The notes under the pieces were generated by a model that was not told the origin of the DNA, did no database searches, and worked only from the letters and a program-made list of their open reading frames with translations. Both the position numbers and the translations under genes were made by a program. A stretch of DNA of 64,000 bases from Candidatus Poribacteria bacterium (lineage in GTDB: Bacteria; Poribacteria; WGA-4E; WGA-3G): NCBI GenBank assembly GCA_022827185.1, contig JAJDTM010000005.1, forward strand, positions 1-64,000. The letters are read 5' to 3'. Of the stretch, positions 31,281 through 39,191 are shown one piece after another. Numbering within the stretch: position 1 is the first letter of the stretch; each line of letters opens with the position of its first letter.

Positions 31281-32783
31281 CTACACCTCACTCCGAACGA
31301 AAATCAGGAATATTATTACGAACAGGACCAGGTTAATCATCAATAGCAGGCATAAATCGGGGAACGCCCGCTTAGCGTTGATACCGATATCACTTCTTGT
31401 AAATGAAAACTGCGGCAGCAGGTCCCAATCAATCTCATTTTCGGCACCAACGAACCATAGGCGAGATTCAAATATCTTTTTGTCAAGATAATAGTTAATG
31501 ACTGCCTGATGATACCGTTGAATCGCAGTGAAAAAATCTTGGAGTCCATTTAAGTCTGTGCCTGTCCACGCTTCGGTTGCCGCGTCATACAGACCGACGG
31601 GTGAAAACTTCAATAGCATCTGCTCCATTTTTGCGGGTTGTGTGTAGAGTGCGTCGAGTGCAGGCTTTCGGACAAGCCACATGCGTTCTGCGGTGTTGGT
31701 AACCTGTGTACCCAAAAAGCGATGATAATTCTGAAGATGTGGCACCTGCGGTTCAGATTCCGCCTCAAGCGTCTTATAATGGAATCCAGTAATATCGTGA
31801 TATCGTAATGCTGATGGATAGTGCCGGAGCCCCCGAAAAGTGTAGCCTTTACCCCGCAAACTAAAATCCCATTTTTCGCCGGGTACGGGGTCATTGGCGA
31901 GATACTGCAGCCGATCTCTCTCAAATTCCTCCCATATCTGTTTGATCCGATTGTAAGTGGAGATTTGCGTATCGGGATGCGGTTCAGTTTTAATCGCTGT
32001 TAGAATCATATTTGGATACACTAACACCAAAAAGCCCCAGACAAACATGGCAAGCATGAGGGCAGTGCCGGTTCGGTGAGTCGCCGCTGAAATCAGCATG
32101 CCGATTAGATAGAACAGCGATAGATAGACAAACGACGTAAAAACGACTCCACCGATACGCAGAAAATCATCGGCACTCAGGAAAACAGAGGCGGATGTCG
32201 TTAGCATAATTAGCACGAGGAGAATACACATCAATAGAGGTATCAGCAGGCATATCATGCCACTAATGTATTTGGCAAATAGGACTTGCCCGCGCCGAAC
32301 AGGATGTGTCAGCACGAGTCGTAATGTGCCATGTTCGCGTTCCCCCGCAATCGTATCGTAGGCAAAAACAAGTGCTAACAGGCTCAGAATACCCTGAAAA
32401 ATAAAAACAAGATCAATCGAAGAAAAGAGGTTGAGAAACGGGTTATCTGCCCCATGTTTCCGAGCATCCCACAGTGTTGGCACGAAGAAATGGTTAACAC
32501 CGAGTGTGTTCCCTAATCGTTTGTCTAAACCGACATTAAAGATGCTCAGCGGGTTGGGTGGACGATCAATCCTTAACCGTGCTGCTGAATAAGTTGTCTG
32601 TTCCAGCATTTCTTGCCGATGTTTTTTGATAGCAGTATCGTAACTTGCCAATCGTCGCTCGTAATCCTTGATAAGCACAGTCGTCGTAGCAACAACAAGC
32701 AACAACATAATCAAGACGGCTGCTGCGAATCGAAAGGTCATTAGATTGTCAAGGAGTTCTCGGCGGATGAGTGTTGTTAGCAT
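31281..32783 (-). CDS. ABC-2 type permease, first of a pair
   Basis: 500 residues with the same layout as the following gene: an N-terminal helix, a soluble loop of about 100 residues, a membrane core with EREHGTLRLVLTHPVRRGQV, a second loop, and a final helix ending IIFLIFVRSEV, nearly the same tail (LAFVRVEV) as its partner. They probably heterodimerise. It starts 49 bp after the sigma/clamp gene and is probably in its transcript. The required ATPase must be encoded elsewhere. Confidence 0.82.
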   Translation of the reverse strand: MLTTLIRRELLDNLMTFRFAAAVLIMLLLVVATTTVLIKDYERRLASYDTAIKKHRQEMLEQTTYSAARLRIDRPPNPLSIFNVGLDKRLGNTLGVNHFFVPTLWDARKHGADNPFLNLFSSIDLVFIFQGILSLLALVFAYDTIAGEREHGTLRLVLTHPVRRGQVLFAKYISGMICLLIPLLMCILLVLIMLTTSASVFLSADDFLRIGGVVFTSFVYLSLFYLIGMLISAATHRTGTALMLAMFVWGFLVLVYPNMILTAIKTEPHPDTQISTYNRIKQIWEEFERDRLQYLANDPVPGEKWDFSLRGKGYTFRGLRHYPSALRYHDITGFHYKTLEAESEPQVPHLQNYHRFLGTQVTNTAERMWLVRKPALDALYTQPAKMEQMLLKFSPVGLYDAATEAWTGTDLNGLQDFFTAIQRYHQAVINYYLDKKIFESRLWFVGAENEIDWDLLPQFSFTRSDIGINAKRAFPDLCLLLMINLVLFVIIFLIFVRSEV

Positions 32784-32832: not shown

Positions 32833-34206
32833 TTAGGCGTTCACGCCTGGTATCGTTAGTACCGACTCTAAAAAATACCTATCTCCGACCGGAAATATCA
32901 AAGTCGCGTGTTCATCTGCAAAGAGCATCTGGTTCTCAATGCGAGAAATCCTGACCTCTGAGGAATTAACAAAAGTTCGCTCGATTTCTTCAAGAATTTT
33001 GAACGGGACCATAAATCCCTGGCTATCTTCAGACAGTTTAAGCGGATCACAACGTGCGAGAGCCAGTTGCTTTCTAACAATTGCCTCAACACCACTTCCA
33101 TCCAAATGGAGCCCGTTTAGAAAGAAGTAGCGGATTTCCTGTGTATCCAGAGCAACTTCAAGTCTATAGAGGACCGACCGCAGGGTTTCTCCATCGATGA
33201 TGAAAGCTTCTGTGCCAACGGAAGGCAGTTGTGGGAACTCTTTATCAGAAAGTTCAACAATTTTGTAAACGTCATTCCCACAAGTGATTTCAACCTGGCC
33301 GTCAGCGGTAGTTGCCAAGTTTACCGGTTTTTCATCGGATAACGCTTTAACGGTATCCTCCAATTTTTCGGCGGAGACAACAATGGATCCTTCCGCCTTG
33401 ACTGTCCCTTCAATCTTCATTCTGACACCGATTTCCATGTCCGTTGCCATGCACTCAATCGTACTTCCTTCGGCGTGAATGAGAATATTTGGGAGAATAG
33501 GTGGGGTCTGCTGCTTACTCGCGACATCCCTCATCACTTGTAGGGAGGACAAAAGGGCATTTCTTTCAAGCGTTAATTTCATTCCAAAACCTCCGTTTAA
33601 ATGTTCTTGGGAGCGACGTTTTCCTTCAATTGTAGTGTCTGATCCCTCTTGAATCATGAATCCATATTTTTTTAACTGTTGCCGCGCTCGGCGAATACGA
33701 CTCTTAATCGTACCTTCTGATACCCCTAAAAAGTTGCCTATTTCTGTGCAGGTCATCCCTTTGAAGTAGTGGAGCGTGATGACTGTCCGGCTGCTCTCCT
33801 GTAACTTTGCGAGCAGCTTTTCGACCACATCGCGTCGTGCCTCAGCAGAAATTTGTGCGTTTTGCCTGGCGACAAATTGGGAATACGCCTCTGTTTCTAT
33901 TTCCAAAGTAGCAGGGTCTTCCAGCGGTTCGGTCTGTAGCCGGTTTTTTCGGTGCCAAGCGATACAGAGACGATCTGCAATCACATAAAGCCACTTTGAA
34001 AACCGCGTCGGATCTTCCAAAGTTTCCAATTTCTGATAAACTTGCAGGAAGGTTTCCTGTGTAATATCTTCGGCGATATGGAAATCCCCAATTTTTCGGT
34101 ATACAAATGCGTGAATCTCTTTCTGATACTTTCTAACCAGACTCGCAAAAGCACTCTCATCACCTGAGAGGATGCGTTGGATCAACGCAATATCATCGTT
34201 TTTCAT
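32833..34206 (-). CDS. ECF sigma factor fused to two-domain DNA sliding clamp (DnaN-like)
   Basis: 457 residues. Residues 1-182 are an ECF sigma factor (EDITQETFLQVYQKL, KWLYVIADRLCIAWHRK; region 4 MTCTEIGNFLGVSEGTIKSR). From residue 209 the chain reads like DNA polymerase III beta: MKLTLERNALLSSLQ, PPILPNILI, MATDMEIGVRM, DKEFPQLP (domain 1) and then IRYFFLNGLHL ... FMVPFKILEEIERTF (domain 2). Domain 3 of the normal clamp, which carries the partner-binding cleft, is absent, and the usual ATDGHRLA of domain 2 has become IVRKQLALA. No membrane helix is present, unlike the other sigma fusions here. It has an ECF-type promoter at 34320-34350. Phage T4 couples a clamp to a sigma for late transcription; a similar role is only inference. 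Confidence 0.9.
   Translation of the reverse strand: MKNDDIALIQRILSGDESAFASLVRKYQKEIHAFVYRKIGDFHIAEDITQETFLQVYQKLETLEDPTRFSKWLYVIADRLCIAWHRKNRLQTEPLEDPATLEIETEAYSQFVARQNAQISAEARRDVVEKLLAKLQESSRTVITLHYFKGMTCTEIGNFLGVSEGTIKSRIRRARQQLKKYGFMIQEGSDTTIEGKRRSQEHLNGGFGMKLTLERNALLSSLQVMRDVASKQQTPPILPNILIHAEGSTIECMATDMEIGVRMKIEGTVKAEGSIVVSAEKLEDTVKALSDEKPVNLATTADGQVEITCGNDVYKIVELSDKEFPQLPSVGTEAFIIDGETLRSVLYRLEVALDTQEIRYFFLNGLHLDGSGVEAIVRKQLALARCDPLKLSEDSQGFMVPFKILEEIERTFVNSSEVRISRIENQMLFADEHATLIFPVGDRYFLESVLTIPGVNA
33582..33594 (-). promoter_or_regulatory. Internal ribosome binding site and start codon for the clamp part
   Basis: On the minus strand GGAGG (33594-33590) stands seven bases before an in-frame ATG (33582-33580) that is codon 209, exactly the first residue of the DnaN-like domain (MKLTLERNALL). 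This would yield a separate 249-residue clamp protein in addition to the fusion. Confidence 0.7.
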
Positions 34207-34319
34207 CAGACATCTCCAGAAAGGCTACTTTTATCAAGGGAACTTATCAATTTCTATGTTTCATAGGTAGGTGCGCCTACACATCGTGAAGAGGCACTCT
34301 ATTCATTCACGTCACTATA

Positions 34320-34350
34320 TAATGACGCGAATTTAAAAAAAAAAGATGCA
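34320..34350 (-). promoter_or_regulatory. ECF-type promoter of the sigma/clamp gene
   Basis: On the minus strand TGCATC (34350-34345), a 17-bp spacer starting with ten T, and CGTC (34327-34324) followed by ATTATA. It lies about 118 bp from the ATG. Upstream sequence (34351-34415) is homologous to 39381-39450 at the next sigma locus. Confidence 0.6.
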
Positions 34351-36150: not shown

Positions 36151-37980
36151 TCACTCTTCGTTGAGGGTGAAGTGAAGCATACCGCTGCTTTGTGTCCCGA
36201 CGTACAACACGTTCCTATCAACAGCAAGGGAGGTCACTCTATCTGGCACTTCCGGTGTGAGTTGTTTCCATGTGACATCATCACTTTCCAACCGATAGAC
36301 ACTCTTCTCGGAAGCCCCATAAACATTTGTGCCATCAACAGCCAATCGTTCCATGATAAGGTGTGTTCCCGCTGTATCGGTGATAGCACGCCAACGTTTT
36401 CCTTCACTTGATGTAGCGACACCGGCATCTGTTGCCACATACACCGTGGAACTAGCAAACACAATCTCTTTGAAAACCTTAACAGGGAATGGCAGGATCG
36501 GAGTGACATCAATCCAATTATTCCCCCTATCAAACGAGACGACGAGGTGCCCATCCCGTTTTCCGACGTAAACGGTGTTCCCTGAAACGGTAAGTTTGAA
36601 CCCTTTCATTTGCCATACATCAACGTCAAGCTCAGCGGTTTCCTCCAGTTCGGTGTCGTACCATTCTGTAGCCCCTGACTCCCATCGGAAGAGTTTAAAG
36701 TTGTATTCCATATAGAACGTGTCGTCACTGACAGCAAACGCGCCACGCAATCCCCCAGAGATAAGTCGATTCGTTTGCAACGGCTCCGCTTGTGCGAGTT
36801 GTTTGAAAAACTGGGTTGCCCCCGGAAAACTTTTTTGTAAGTGTTCAGCGAGCGACCTACCTTGTAAATCAAGACGGCCCATTTCTTTTAGTATATCAAG
36901 ACGGCCGATTTTTCTTAGATACAACTCACTCCTCAACATTCCTGAGTTAAAGCGCGGTATCTCTTGAACCGGCACAAGCCTATTATCATTCGCGGACACG
37001 CGATACAAGTGCACATTATCAGGCGTGCCACCTTTTGCATAAAGCACACCATCAGATTTGGTTACGTGTACTATAGGTGGATGTGGATTTCTAACAGGCA
37101 TTTTCATCGGTATCTCTGCATGAACAGCCTTCCAAGAATGCCCAGAGTCAGTAGTTTTCATTATCCCTTCTTCCATTCTTCCATAGAGCGTCGTAGGCGT
37201 ATCTTGTCCGTTCCCGGTTTCTTTAAAGGCGACCAGGTCAAGGACTTGTGCAGGACGACCTATATTGACAAGGTCCCACGATTCACCGCCATTAGTGGTA
37301 CGATAGAGGCCAGTATCTCCGGCAACATAAATAGTATTTTCAGCCACTGTGGCGGCGGCGTATATAGGGGACAAAGGAAAAGAAGTCCCCAGTAGTTGCG
37401 GAGCCAGCCATGTCCGTCCACCATCCGTAGAACGCACTATACCTCCGTTCTCGCTTGCCAAAAGCGTTTCACCGACAGCAAAGAGTTGAATCCAAGGTGC
37501 TCTCCCTTTTATGGGCCAAGCGTTGGTTGGTGTTATATCTTCCCATGAATTCCCAAAGTCGCTCGAGCGGAACATCCACCACGTCCGCTGCTGTTCACGG
37601 TCTACTTTTTGACGATCTATTTGATCCGAATCTAACTCTACTGAAACATAGAGTCGTTTCTCAGTCGTCGCGACTGCCCGAATGACCTTGGCTGGCACGG
37701 GGAGTTCCAAGCGTTGCCAACCACCACCCTCAAGCCGATAAAGTCCATCTTTCGTTCCAGCAAATACTGGCGGTGATCCCAAATGGACTGTATTCCGGAT
37801 CGTCACCAAGGATACTATTTCGCCTGTCAACCCATCGTTTATCGCCTCCCAGGTCTTACCGCCATCTTCAGAACGAAAAATACCGTTCTCAAAAGCGAGA
37901 TAAAAGCTTGATCCGTTAGCACCAATGCAACCGGATTCCAATACTGATTTTCTTCCTGCCAAGAGTAGAGCAAATCCCAT
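36151..37980 (-). CDS. Asp-box propeller, C-terminal part of a frameshifted sigma fusion
   Basis: An open frame of 609 codons whose first 20-odd residues are probably not natural. From SSFYLAFENGIFRSEDGGKT onward it aligns with residues of the intact sigma/propeller at 15357-18269 (MYLALRDKGIFRSTDGGALW). Asp-boxes include SSDFGNSW, STDGGRTW, TTNGGESW, TTDSGHSW and SFDRGNNW. It overlaps the sigma part by 142 bp in another frame. A single -1 shift near the TTTT run at 37902-37905 joins the two into one protein of about 1013 residues. Alone it has no start signal or signal peptide. Confidence 0.8.
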   Translation of the reverse strand: MGFALLLAGRKSVLESGCIGANGSSFYLAFENGIFRSEDGGKTWEAINDGLTGEIVSLVTIRNTVHLGSPPVFAGTKDGLYRLEGGGWQRLELPVPAKVIRAVATTEKRLYVSVELDSDQIDRQKVDREQQRTWWMFRSSDFGNSWEDITPTNAWPIKGRAPWIQLFAVGETLLASENGGIVRSTDGGRTWLAPQLLGTSFPLSPIYAAATVAENTIYVAGDTGLYRTTNGGESWDLVNIGRPAQVLDLVAFKETGNGQDTPTTLYGRMEEGIMKTTDSGHSWKAVHAEIPMKMPVRNPHPPIVHVTKSDGVLYAKGGTPDNVHLYRVSANDNRLVPVQEIPRFNSGMLRSELYLRKIGRLDILKEMGRLDLQGRSLAEHLQKSFPGATQFFKQLAQAEPLQTNRLISGGLRGAFAVSDDTFYMEYNFKLFRWESGATEWYDTELEETAELDVDVWQMKGFKLTVSGNTVYVGKRDGHLVVSFDRGNNWIDVTPILPFPVKVFKEIVFASSTVYVATDAGVATSSEGKRWRAITDTAGTHLIMERLAVDGTNVYGASEKSVYRLESDDVTWKQLTPEVPDRVTSLAVDRNVLYVGTQSSGMLHFTLNEE

Positions 37981-39191
37981 GTCACACCACCATCTGTTGA
38001 AGCAAAAAGTTGGTCAGATGGAACAACATAGAAGGTATCGTTCCACTTTGCGACAAGTGATCTTGGGGCCCAATTGGTATCCAATGACCTCATGTCGGAG
38101 ATGTGCTGCCATTTCTTTTCATCGGCTGATAATTTGTGTATATCCAGGTCATCATCAACTATGTAAAGTTCATCTTTAAGTGTCGTAAATACCGTAGTTA
38201 GCCAAGTGCCTCTGGCAGGCTTCGCCTGTACCCACTGTCGTTTAGAGACAGAAATGTCTTCACCCTCTGTCTGCGCAGCAGCAAACAAAATCTCATCAGG
38301 TTGCTGTCCAGCACTATTGTTTTTGCCCTGCGCGTTGGTATTTTCAAGTTGTGTCCGGTCATCCGGTTCGGATTCAAGATTTAACACGACGGGTGCCTCA
38401 ATCAGTTCAACCTTCATCTCTGACGCAGCATCAAAGCTATATGGCTTTTGGAAACGTGATAAGGATTGCGTGCCAACACCCAACAGCAAAAGGACGACTG
38501 CTAACGTGGAAACACCTATTGCCCACGGGACCAACGGTTTGCCGCCAGACGGTGCAGCCGGTTTTAGACGTGAAATCCCTTGCATGATATTTTCTGTAAG
38601 ACTTGGCGTGATTTGAAAATTCTCTAAAGCCTCTCGTATCATCGGTTCCTCTTTCTTCAAACGTTGCTGGACGCGGTAAACGCGAGTTTTAATCGCGCCT
38701 ACCGATACGCCTAAAAACTTGCTGATCTCTTGATAAGTCATTCCACCGAAGTAATAAAGTGTGATGACTGTTCGATCACTTTCCTGTAATTTTGCGAGGA
38801 GTTTCTTGACGACTTCGCGTTGTGTTTCAACCGCCATTCGCTCGTTTTCTTCAATGACATATCCAGAGTACGTCGCTTTTTCTAACTGTACACTGCTTGT
38901 GTCTTCCAGCGATTGTATCCACAGACGTTTTTTACGGAGCCACGTGCTGCAATGGTTCGCTGCTATCACATACAGCCAACTCGCAAAACGCTGCGGCTTC
39001 TTCAGTGTTGAAAGTTTCTGATACGCTTTCAGGAATGTATCCTGTGTAATATCCTCGGCGATGTGGAAATCTCCAACCTTTCGCCACGCCAGTGCGTGAA
39101 CGGACTTTTGGTATTTTTTCACAAGCACAGAAAACGCGGTATCGTCGCCGTCAAGGACACACTGGATGAGTTCAGGATCGTCGTTTTTCAT
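37839..39191 (-). CDS. ECF sigma factor with membrane helix, N-terminal part of a frameshifted propeller fusion
   Basis: 450 residues in frame. Region 2 (EDITQDTFLKAYQKL) and region 4 (MTYQEISKFLGVSVGAIKTR) are intact, a transmembrane helix lies at about 222-240 (PWAIGVSTLAVVLLLLGVG), and RFQKPYSFDAASE follows as in the two sister proteins. The first Asp-box (STDGGVTW) is present; the reading then leaves the homologous frame at about residue 430 and ends in an arginine-rich tail (FVLKMAVRPGRR). The sigma and membrane parts could still work; the propeller continues in the -1 frame (36151-37980). Promoter at 39237-39268. Confidence 0.85.
   Translation of the reverse strand: MKNDDPELIQCVLDGDDTAFSVLVKKYQKSVHALAWRKVGDFHIAEDITQDTFLKAYQKLSTLKKPQRFASWLYVIAANHCSTWLRKKRLWIQSLEDTSSVQLEKATYSGYVIEENERMAVETQREVVKKLLAKLQESDRTVITLYYFGGMTYQEISKFLGVSVGAIKTRVYRVQQRLKKEEPMIREALENFQITPSLTENIMQGISRLKPAAPSGGKPLVPWAIGVSTLAVVLLLLGVGTQSLSRFQKPYSFDAASEMKVELIEAPVVLNLESEPDDRTQLENTNAQGKNNSAGQQPDEILFAAAQTEGEDISVSKRQWVQAKPARGTWLTTVFTTLKDELYIVDDDLDIHKLSADEKKWQHISDMRSLDTNWAPRSLVAKWNDTFYVVPSDQLFASTDGGVTWDLLYSWQEENQYWNPVALVLTDQAFISLLRTVFFVLKMAVRPGRR

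What the first reader, a model, noticed from the sequence alone, without database searches (positions are those of the whole stretch)
32833..34206. ECF sigma factor fused to a DNA sliding clamp
One uninterrupted frame joins a complete ECF sigma factor (regions 2 and 4, residues 1-182) to a DnaN-like clamp (residues 209-457) with recognisable domains 1 and 2 (PPILPNILI, MATDMEIGVRM, DKEFPQLP, IRYFFLNGLHL). Domain 3 is missing. A two-domain clamp could close a ring as a trimer, as PCNA does, rather than as the bacterial dimer. The known precedent for a clamp acting on transcription is phage T4 gp45 with its late sigma; a covalent sigma/clamp in a bacterium is something I do not know of. It could load RNA polymerase by tracking along DNA or link transcription to replication.
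Basis: partly seen in the sequence, partly recalled or inferred. Interest (0 to 1): 0.93.

Follow-up and report, generated by a model that had tools for sequence, protein, structure and literature searches.

The report
Sigma factor fused to DNA clamp
A bacterium related to the Poribacteria carries one gene that joins a transcription-starting sigma factor to two of the three domains of a DNA sliding clamp; dozens of its relatives carry sigma-clamp genes too, and the clamp part is likely a built-in control domain rather than a ring that slides on DNA.

Summary
On the minus strand (34206-32833) one 457-aa frame joins an ECF sigma factor to DnaN domains 1 and 2; domain 3 is absent. It is no assembly error: sigma-clamp fusions appear in at least 34 of 38 same-genus genomes searched, most simply from two separate joinings with two sigma types. 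Most carry all three clamp domains; the window's two-domain form is a derived paralog.

The sigma half looks functional: lowest Ka/Ks of the parts, and a conserved ECF-type promoter before its own gene. ABC-export genes lie beside 36 of 44 fusions, against 0 of 22 unfused clamps and 0 of 12 unfused ECFs. The clamp half is losing clamp features: no domain 3, cleft largely changed. At the matching locus of one relative a closely related sigma carries an unrelated tail. I therefore judge the clamp a recruited regulatory extension; a T4-like sliding sigma stays possible for three-domain forms.

Unexpected: all 44 junctions read keep a strong ribosome-binding site and ATG at the clamp start, so the gene probably also makes free clamp (one relative known as protein only lacks that Met). 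Sigma genes with unrelated partners show the same design. Nothing was tested at the bench.

The parts
32833..34206 (-). sigma-clamp fusion gene, 457 aa, stop codon included
33940..34140 (-). sigma-70 region 2 (residues 23-89)
   Evidence: Pfam PF04542; own-genome hit
33667..33816 (-). sigma-70 region 4 (residues 131-180)
   Evidence: Pfam PF04545/PF08281
33583..33666 (-). linker, residues 181-208, open in 36 of 36 type-i fusions compared
33590..33594 (-). internal Shine-Dalgarno sequence GGAGG inside the linker
33580..33582 (-). in-frame ATG (M209), native start of the clamp module, predicted second translation start
   Evidence: P0003 has I here
33223..33582 (-). DnaN domain 1 (residues 209-328)
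   Evidence: Pfam PF00712; fold
32911..33198 (-). DnaN domain 2 (residues 337-432), cleft motif degenerate; model confidence under 50 at residues 348-379
   Evidence: Pfam PF02767
34318..34350 (-). ECF-type promoter: -35 TGCATC, 15-base spacer, -10 CGCGTCATTATA
31281..32783 (-). ABC-2 permease, next gene downstream, 49 bases after the fusion's stop codon
   Evidence: Pfam PF12679
29870..31291 (-). second ABC-2 permease, overlaps the first
   Evidence: Pfam PF12679

Best explanation
The gene encodes an ECF sigma factor joined in frame to domains 1 and 2 of a duplicated DNA sliding clamp, and the clamp part likely serves as the sigma factor's on-board regulatory domain, not as a ring on DNA. SHOWN by sequence: the fusion; its spread over the genus; purifying selection; the ECF-type promoter in front of its own gene; ABC-export genes beside it; a Shine-Dalgarno sequence and ATG at the clamp start; absence of domain 3 and change of most cleft positions. 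INFERRED: two separate origins (the simplest reading of the tree and of the two sigma types); the sigma directs RNA polymerase to its own promoter and so switches on the fusion together with the ABC permeases behind it; the clamp module holds or releases the sigma, by a contact or ligand not identified; the inner start supplies free clamp module that could titrate or pair with the fused one. In this lineage the same C-terminal slot is filled by other tails (membrane helix plus WD40, LRR or other propellers, an HTH domain, a crystallin-like domain), so the clamp looks like one of several exchangeable modules.
For: (1) ECF sigma regions 2 and 4 complete; sigma is the most constrained part in each group: median Ka/Ks 0.18 in 6 two-domain pairs (clamp D1 0.27, D2 0.31, tail 0.38) and 0.12 in three-domain pairs (402 of 406 pairs used; D1 0.24, D2 0.17, D3 0.38). 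(2) Motif TTCGCGTCAYTATA: 58 sites against 9 for the reversed control in 38 genomes; of 57 distinct contexts read, 23 precede sigma-clamp genes, 20 other sigma fusions of the family, 4 an ABC-exporter type of gene (one such gene put to Pfam). (3) An ABC-export part within 1.2 kb on the same strand in 36 of 44 fusions, 26 of them starting within 200 bases downstream; 0 of 22 unfused clamps and 0 of 12 unfused ECFs with the same four query proteins, which were taken from fusion loci. (4) Domain 3 absent; cleft columns 7 of 10 changed against 39% overall, Fisher p 0.047. (5) Tail swap: P0269 has a sigma 94% identical to the window's (over 93% of it) but no clamp; L070 (G006) is the syntenic case with a near-identical promoter. 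(6) Sister fusions in the own genome: 12 of 14 long-tailed ones among the 30 best sigma loci have a strongly hydrophobic stretch about 40 residues after region 4, and of 10 put to Pfam several carry WD40, LRR, Reg_prop or BNR-type repeats. (7) ECFs with regulatory C-terminal extensions are an established class (PMC8999054: passages; section 3.5 first part).
Against: No regulation, binding or expression was measured. The D1 half of the ring interface is not specially eroded in the two-domain form (2 of 10 columns changed), and K198 is kept in 4 of 4, so contact with another clamp or DNA is not excluded. In type ii the cleft is fully kept (0 of 16 changed, p 0.007), as a working clamp would keep it. 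Clamp domains stay under purifying selection. One two-domain locus, L147, keeps an AADG motif and ends differently from the rest. The p values come from few, related sequences and several tests, with residue sets recalled from the literature. The 'crystallin-like' label is a sub-threshold Pfam hit (0.0044, 17.5 of 25 bits; no hit in P0269).
Confidence: 0.5

Rival explanations
1. Clamp-tethered sigma: the clamp part closes a ring (with itself, with free clamp from the inner start, or with the replicative clamp) and carries the sigma factor along DNA, a covalent version of T4 late transcription.
For: Clamp fold and homology; three-domain fusions are the majority; type ii keeps the whole cleft; the inner start would supply sigma-free subunits. 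Shi et al. 2021 write that other instances of clamp-driven activation are likely to be found (discussion read).
Against: Window form lacks domain 3. In 29 three-domain type-i clamps, interface and DNA-facing positions recalled as important have changed (L82 to W in 26, residue 273 to R, V, F or H in 27, R24 absent in 18 including 3 gaps, K73 replaced in 27), though as a set they are not changed more than the background (interface 8 of 18, p 0.18; DNA face 5 of 8, p 0.05). The clamp stands exchanged for an unrelated tail at one locus. Sister fusions have tails unrelated to DNA.
Confidence: 0.18
2. Two-in-one gene only: the in-frame joining is a way to couple synthesis; the working products are sigma and free clamp-like protein, and the covalent fusion itself has little function.
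For: SD and ATG at 44 of 44 junctions; the same at 33 of 35 sigma-HTH junctions found by a pattern.
Against: If the joining were idle the linker should gain stops: 36 of 36 type-i linkers are open, while neutral simulations gave all-open trees in 0 of 2000 runs at full and at half the third-position rate and 2 of 2000 at a quarter; but loci were found as open frames, which favours this result. P0003 lacks the inner Met yet keeps the fusion, and P0308 lacks it at the crystallin-like tail.
Confidence: 0.17
3. Decaying pseudo-clamp: the two-domain tail is a relic being lost from an otherwise normal sigma factor.
For: Domain 3 is gone, and the ATDG-type motif is gone in 13 of 13 aligned two-domain proteins (L147 keeps AADG); pLDDT under 50 over residues 348-379; a different tail in relatives; a related fusion in G070 is frameshifted; four listed fusions of 488-509 aa (P0017, P0069, P0100, P0109) also lack a domain-3 hit, with ends that look cut.
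Against: Ka/Ks 0.27 and 0.31 in clamp domains of the 6 pairs; frames of 454-461 aa in all 12 listed relatives; the C-terminus PGVNA is shared by 11 of 13 aligned two-domain proteins, with one change in the other two.
Confidence: 0.12

Closest known systems
[quoted passage not shown] review PMC8999054, passages and part of section 3.5 read)
   Same: ECF regions 2 and 4 followed directly by an extra domain; sister proteins here carry WD40 or membrane tails; none of the neighbours that I put to Pfam was named an anti-sigma
   Different: No extension made of a DNA sliding clamp is named there ('clamp' occurs 0 times in its main text); here a ribosome-binding site and ATG lie at the junction
T4 late transcription: gp55 sigma-like protein, gp33, clamp gp45 (PMC7892883; abstract and discussion read)
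   Same: A sigma-family protein physically tied to a sliding clamp
   Different: There the link is non-covalent, through clamp-binding motifs, and the clamp is a complete ring; here it is covalent and the window's clamp lacks a domain
Bacterial DnaN (beta clamp)
   Same: Domains 1 and 2, fold, and 54-57% identity to the unfused C18 clamp of the same genome
   Different: No domain 3, below the TIGR00663 cut-off, cleft changed, fused to sigma
Extra DnaN copies as self-resistance genes (griR, mypR; PMC10817943, passages read)
   Same: A second, diverged DnaN in addition to the replicative one; export genes nearby in our case
   Different: Nothing in the passages read says those are fused to anything; no griselimycin-type cluster was sought here

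Membership tests
ECF (group 4) sigma factor | Regions 2 and 4 present over Pfam cut-off | tested here: met
   SigW 5wuq aligned over residues 9-180, 2e-26
ECF (group 4) sigma factor | ECF-type promoter before its own gene, conserved -35 and -10 | tested here: met
   TGCANC-N15/16-CGCGTC ahead of the gene and of relatives; that this sigma reads it is inferred
Bacterial DnaN sliding clamp | Domains 1 and 2 with clamp fold | tested here: met
Bacterial DnaN sliding clamp | Third domain | tested here: not met
   no PF02768 hit; protein ends at residue 457
Bacterial DnaN sliding clamp | NCBI equivalog cut-off TIGR00663 (137.65 bits) | tested here: not met
   116 bits
Bacterial DnaN sliding clamp | Conserved protein-binding cleft | tested here: not met
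   7 of 10 testable columns changed in the two-domain group of 4, (cleft residues recalled)
Bacterial DnaN sliding clamp | Closed ring around DNA | not testable with these tools
   no complex prediction on hand
PCNA-like two-domain trimeric clamp | Trimer through head-to-tail contacts of two domains | not testable with these tools
   only single chains could be modelled
ECF with regulatory C-terminal extension | Extra domain directly after region 4 | tested here: met
ECF with regulatory C-terminal extension | Extension controls sigma activity | not testable with these tools
   needs a reporter assay
T4-like clamp-activated transcription | Complete clamp ring acting with the sigma | tested here: inconclusive
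   window form lacks domain 3; three-domain relatives exist but ring formation is untested

The most novel reading that the evidence does not exclude
A sliding clamp turned into a sensor: in this Poribacteria lineage a decoy copy of the replication clamp is welded to an autoregulated sigma factor and placed ahead of drug-type ABC exporters. Ligands of the clamp's peptide cleft (clamp-binding proteins freed at stalled forks, or clamp-targeting antibiotics of the griselimycin kind) would free the sigma and switch on export. This fits best the type-ii fusions, whose cleft is wholly kept while ring-contact and DNA-facing residues drift; type i and the window's two-domain form would be later, re-specialised versions.
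Probability: 0.13. Interest if true: 0.92.

Novelty: new variant of a known kind. Interest (0 to 1): 0.72.

Why it matters
It shows that a core replication part can be recruited, most simply twice, as a module of transcription factors, and gives a natural covalent sigma-clamp pair with which to ask whether clamps can steer RNA polymerase outside phage T4. The restart site at every junction read suggests one gene making two proteins, repeated across sigma genes with unrelated partners, a design that can be tested directly by expressing one gene. The conserved promoter motif makes a reporter assay possible in a laboratory strain.

Tried and rejected
First structure prediction on 32 close relatives failed (pLDDT 45.1) and was not interpreted; a deeper alignment of 80 rows gave 70.2. 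Assembly error: rejected, see observation check. Idea that ring-interface residues were selectively destroyed: not significant (7 of 18 changed in type ii, p 0.28; 8 of 18 in three-domain type i, p 0.18; 9 of 18 in g19, p 0.47), so I say only that they are not protected. Idea of knob-into-hole re-design at residues 82 and 272: dropped, because g19 clamps have W82 with L272. Standalone two-domain clamp in G049: rejected, it is a dnaN cut by the contig end, near dnaA. Literature: searches showed no title or abstract start that names a sigma-clamp fusion or a Poribacteria ECF study; these were listings, and most subscription papers are not held, so this is no proof of absence. Of the genomes held, 82 were searched for fusions (38 same genus, 20 others of the family, 24 others of the class), and the match tables were cut at about 150 rows, so 'none' always means none among listed rows.

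Rows dropped before counts: L134 (runs of N) from the clamp alignment, tree and SD tables; L143 (domain 1 deleted) from the tree and Ka/Ks; identical frames; 4 of 406 three-domain pairs; 1 of 31 promoter sites was not among the 30 loci read. The sigma-HTH junctions were found by a pattern that demands G and M, so they are a biased sample. Fusions were found as open frames, so broken ones are under-counted; one frameshifted case (G070, L289) was seen.

Residue roles in E. coli beta (cleft, interface, DNA contacts), the anti-SD sequence, and griselimycin binding in the cleft are recalled; the 16S end with CACCTCC was checked in the own genome.

Full report

HOW WIDESPREAD. A protein search scored 1575 hits and listed 120: 12 two-domain relatives (454-461 aa, 73-95% identity), then 104 fusions of 550-591 aa with all three clamp domains and 4 of 488-509 aa without a domain-3 hit (P0017, P0069, P0100, P0109); the few with an organism name are Candidatus Poribacteria. 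In whole genomes, rows listed show a fusion in at least 34 of 38 same-genus genomes (27 with the window's sigma type, 6 more with a second type, one, G025, with clamp domain 1 deleted); G011, G013, G028 and G034 show none among the listed rows. In the sister genus g19, 5 of 18 genomes have one (3 complete: G079, G072, G073; G070 frameshifted; G076 cut at a contig end), in g18 0 of 2, and in 24 genomes of other families of the class 0 among the listed rows.

TWO ORIGINS, MOST SIMPLY. I read 44 fusion loci. A tree of their clamps with unfused ones puts 36 fused clamps of the window's sigma type (29 three-domain, 3 from g19, 4 two-domain) in one clade (100/100) and the 7 type-ii clamps in another (100/99), which branches beside the unfused clamps (the bootstrap had not settled). 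Type-ii fusions carry a different ECF sigma (sigma-profile scores 49-59 against 259-380 bits for type i), are 66-72% identical to the type-ii query L066, while type-i rows are 40-45%. One joining followed by losses and a change of sigma is not formally excluded. The two-domain group is one clade (100/99) inside the fused lineage, as sister to the rest (93/80), so a loss of domain 3 there is the simplest reading. The own genome also has a three-domain fusion (G000:C60) and three unfused DnaN genes.

THE JUNCTION. At all 44 junctions a Shine-Dalgarno-like sequence lies about 7 bases ahead of an in-frame ATG at the clamp's own first residue. Predicted pairing with the 16S tail is -6.1 kcal/mol or better in 44 of 44 (median -10.65), stronger than at the fusions' own starts (-6.4) and at unfused dnaN starts (-7.9, n 21), against -2.0 for 368 other in-frame ATGs (p 1.7e-25; the loci are related, so the p value overstates). 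The amino acids there vary (for example NGG, NGD, DGG, KGG, NEG, HEG, KEG, KEA, KED, RGD) while the base motif stays. P0003, known as protein only, has Ile in place of the Met, so the restart is not universal. The own 16S rRNA end carries the matching tail. The same layout is seen where the partner is unrelated: 33 of 35 sigma-HTH junctions picked by a pattern, and the crystallin-like junction of L070 (-7.8), though P0308 has Ile there. Yet the joining itself is kept: all 36 type-i linkers are open, which neutral simulation almost never reproduces, with the caveat that loci were chosen as open frames.

THE SIGMA WORKS, AS FAR AS SEQUENCE TELLS. It has the lowest Ka/Ks of the parts. Ahead of the gene lies TGCATC-N15-CGCGTCATTATA (34350 to 34318). 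In the window alone the -10 pattern with one mismatch is no more than chance would allow (2 matches, 22 of 100 shuffles reach that); the case rests on conservation. TGCANC-N14-17-CGCGTC occurs 31 times in the own genome against 5 for the reversed control; 10 of the 30 sites read sit just ahead of genes of this sigma family. The stricter TTCGCGTCAYTATA gives 58 sites against 9 in 38 genomes; of 57 distinct contexts read, 23 precede sigma-clamp genes, 20 other sigma fusions, 10 other genes (4 of them of one ABC-exporter type, Pfam-confirmed in the L075 copy) and 4 no clear gene. Type-ii fusions do not show this motif in the stretch read. That this sigma reads this promoter is inferred from its place and conservation.

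WHAT IT SITS BESIDE. In the window two ABC-2 permeases follow at once. In 36 of 44 fusions an ABC-2, MacB/FtsX or ABC exporter gene lies within 1.2 kb on the same strand, and in 26 it begins within 200 bases downstream; 0 of 22 unfused clamps and 0 of 12 unfused ECFs of the own genome do so with the same queries. Such permeases are numerous (11 to 45 matches per genome with one query), so which one follows varies.

WHAT BECAME OF THE CLAMP. Using residue sets recalled for E. coli beta, I asked which columns constant in 19 unfused clamps have changed. Type ii: cleft 0 of 16 against 28% overall (p 0.007), interface 7 of 18 (p 0.28), DNA face 3 of 8. Type i three-domain: cleft 5 of 16, interface 8 of 18, DNA face 5 of 8 (p 0.05), 30% overall. 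g19: 5 of 16, 9 of 18, 3 of 8, 42% overall. Two-domain: cleft 7 of 10 against 39% (p 0.047), interface 2 of 10, DNA face 3 of 8. These are few, related sequences and several tests. The fair reading is that type ii keeps a ligand cleft, type i has altered it in part, and the window's group has largely lost it; ring contacts are nowhere shown to be specially protected, and in the window's group domain 3 is gone.

THE TAIL IS EXCHANGEABLE. P0269 has a sigma 94% identical to the window's, then an unrelated tail of about 100 residues; six more such proteins were aligned. In G006 the syntenic locus (similar FG-GAP neighbour, two ABC-2 permeases of which the first is 63% identical, near-identical promoter, sigma 83% identical) has this tail in place of the clamp. 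Pfam suggests a beta/gamma crystallin fold only below its cut-off. In the own genome 105 region-2 matches were found, many in frames of 400 to over 1000 aa; among the 30 best loci, 12 of 14 long-tailed ones have a strongly hydrophobic stretch about 40 residues after region 4, and among 10 put to Pfam there are WD40, LRR, Reg_prop and BNR-type tails as well as tails with no hit.

READING. The parts fit an autoregulated ECF sigma whose regulatory slot was filled by a spare clamp, controlling ABC export. Regulatory C-terminal extensions are an established ECF class (PMC8999054, section 3.5, first part read). The T4 precedent shows that a clamp can drive transcription by tethering RNA polymerase, and its authors expect further cases (PMC7892883, discussion read); for the complete three-domain fusions this remains open, for the two-domain window protein I think it unlikely. 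What the clamp module senses is unknown; clamp-targeting natural products exist (PMC10817943, passages read), which motivates the sensor reading offered as the novel case.

Noticed in passing
L287:926-3007 (-), G061:C2: One 693-aa frame joins a three-domain DnaN clamp to FtsZ (Pfam Tubulin/FtsZ GTPase 3.3e-39, FtsZ_C 3.8e-19): a sliding clamp-FtsZ fusion in the sister genus g18.
   Followed up: partly
window 36151-39191 (-): A sigma-TM-propeller fusion appears broken: the sigma-TM frame (37839-39191) and the propeller frame (36151-37980) overlap in different frames.
   Followed up: no
L143:4802-6220, G025:C152: Type-ii sigma-clamp with clamp domain 1 deleted, leaving sigma plus domains 2 and 3, the mirror image of the window's truncation.
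   Followed up: partly
G000, whole genome: 105 matches to sigma region 2; many lie in frames of 400 to over 1000 aa, and those read often have a hydrophobic stretch and WD40, LRR or propeller repeats, as if single-chain membrane-to-promoter signalling were a habit of this lineage.
   Followed up: partly
L289, G070:C81: A g19 sigma-clamp gene split by a frameshift near the end of clamp domain 1 into frames of 335 and 275 aa.
   Followed up: no
L068:6583-9094, G000:C57: Two extra unfused three-domain-length dnaN genes in tandem, apart from the one on C18; some cleft residues differ from the C18 copy.
   Followed up: no
window 34308-34329: The -10 element lies in an inverted repeat (CGTCATTATA, and CGTCACTATA on the other strand); some relatives share it.
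   Followed up: no
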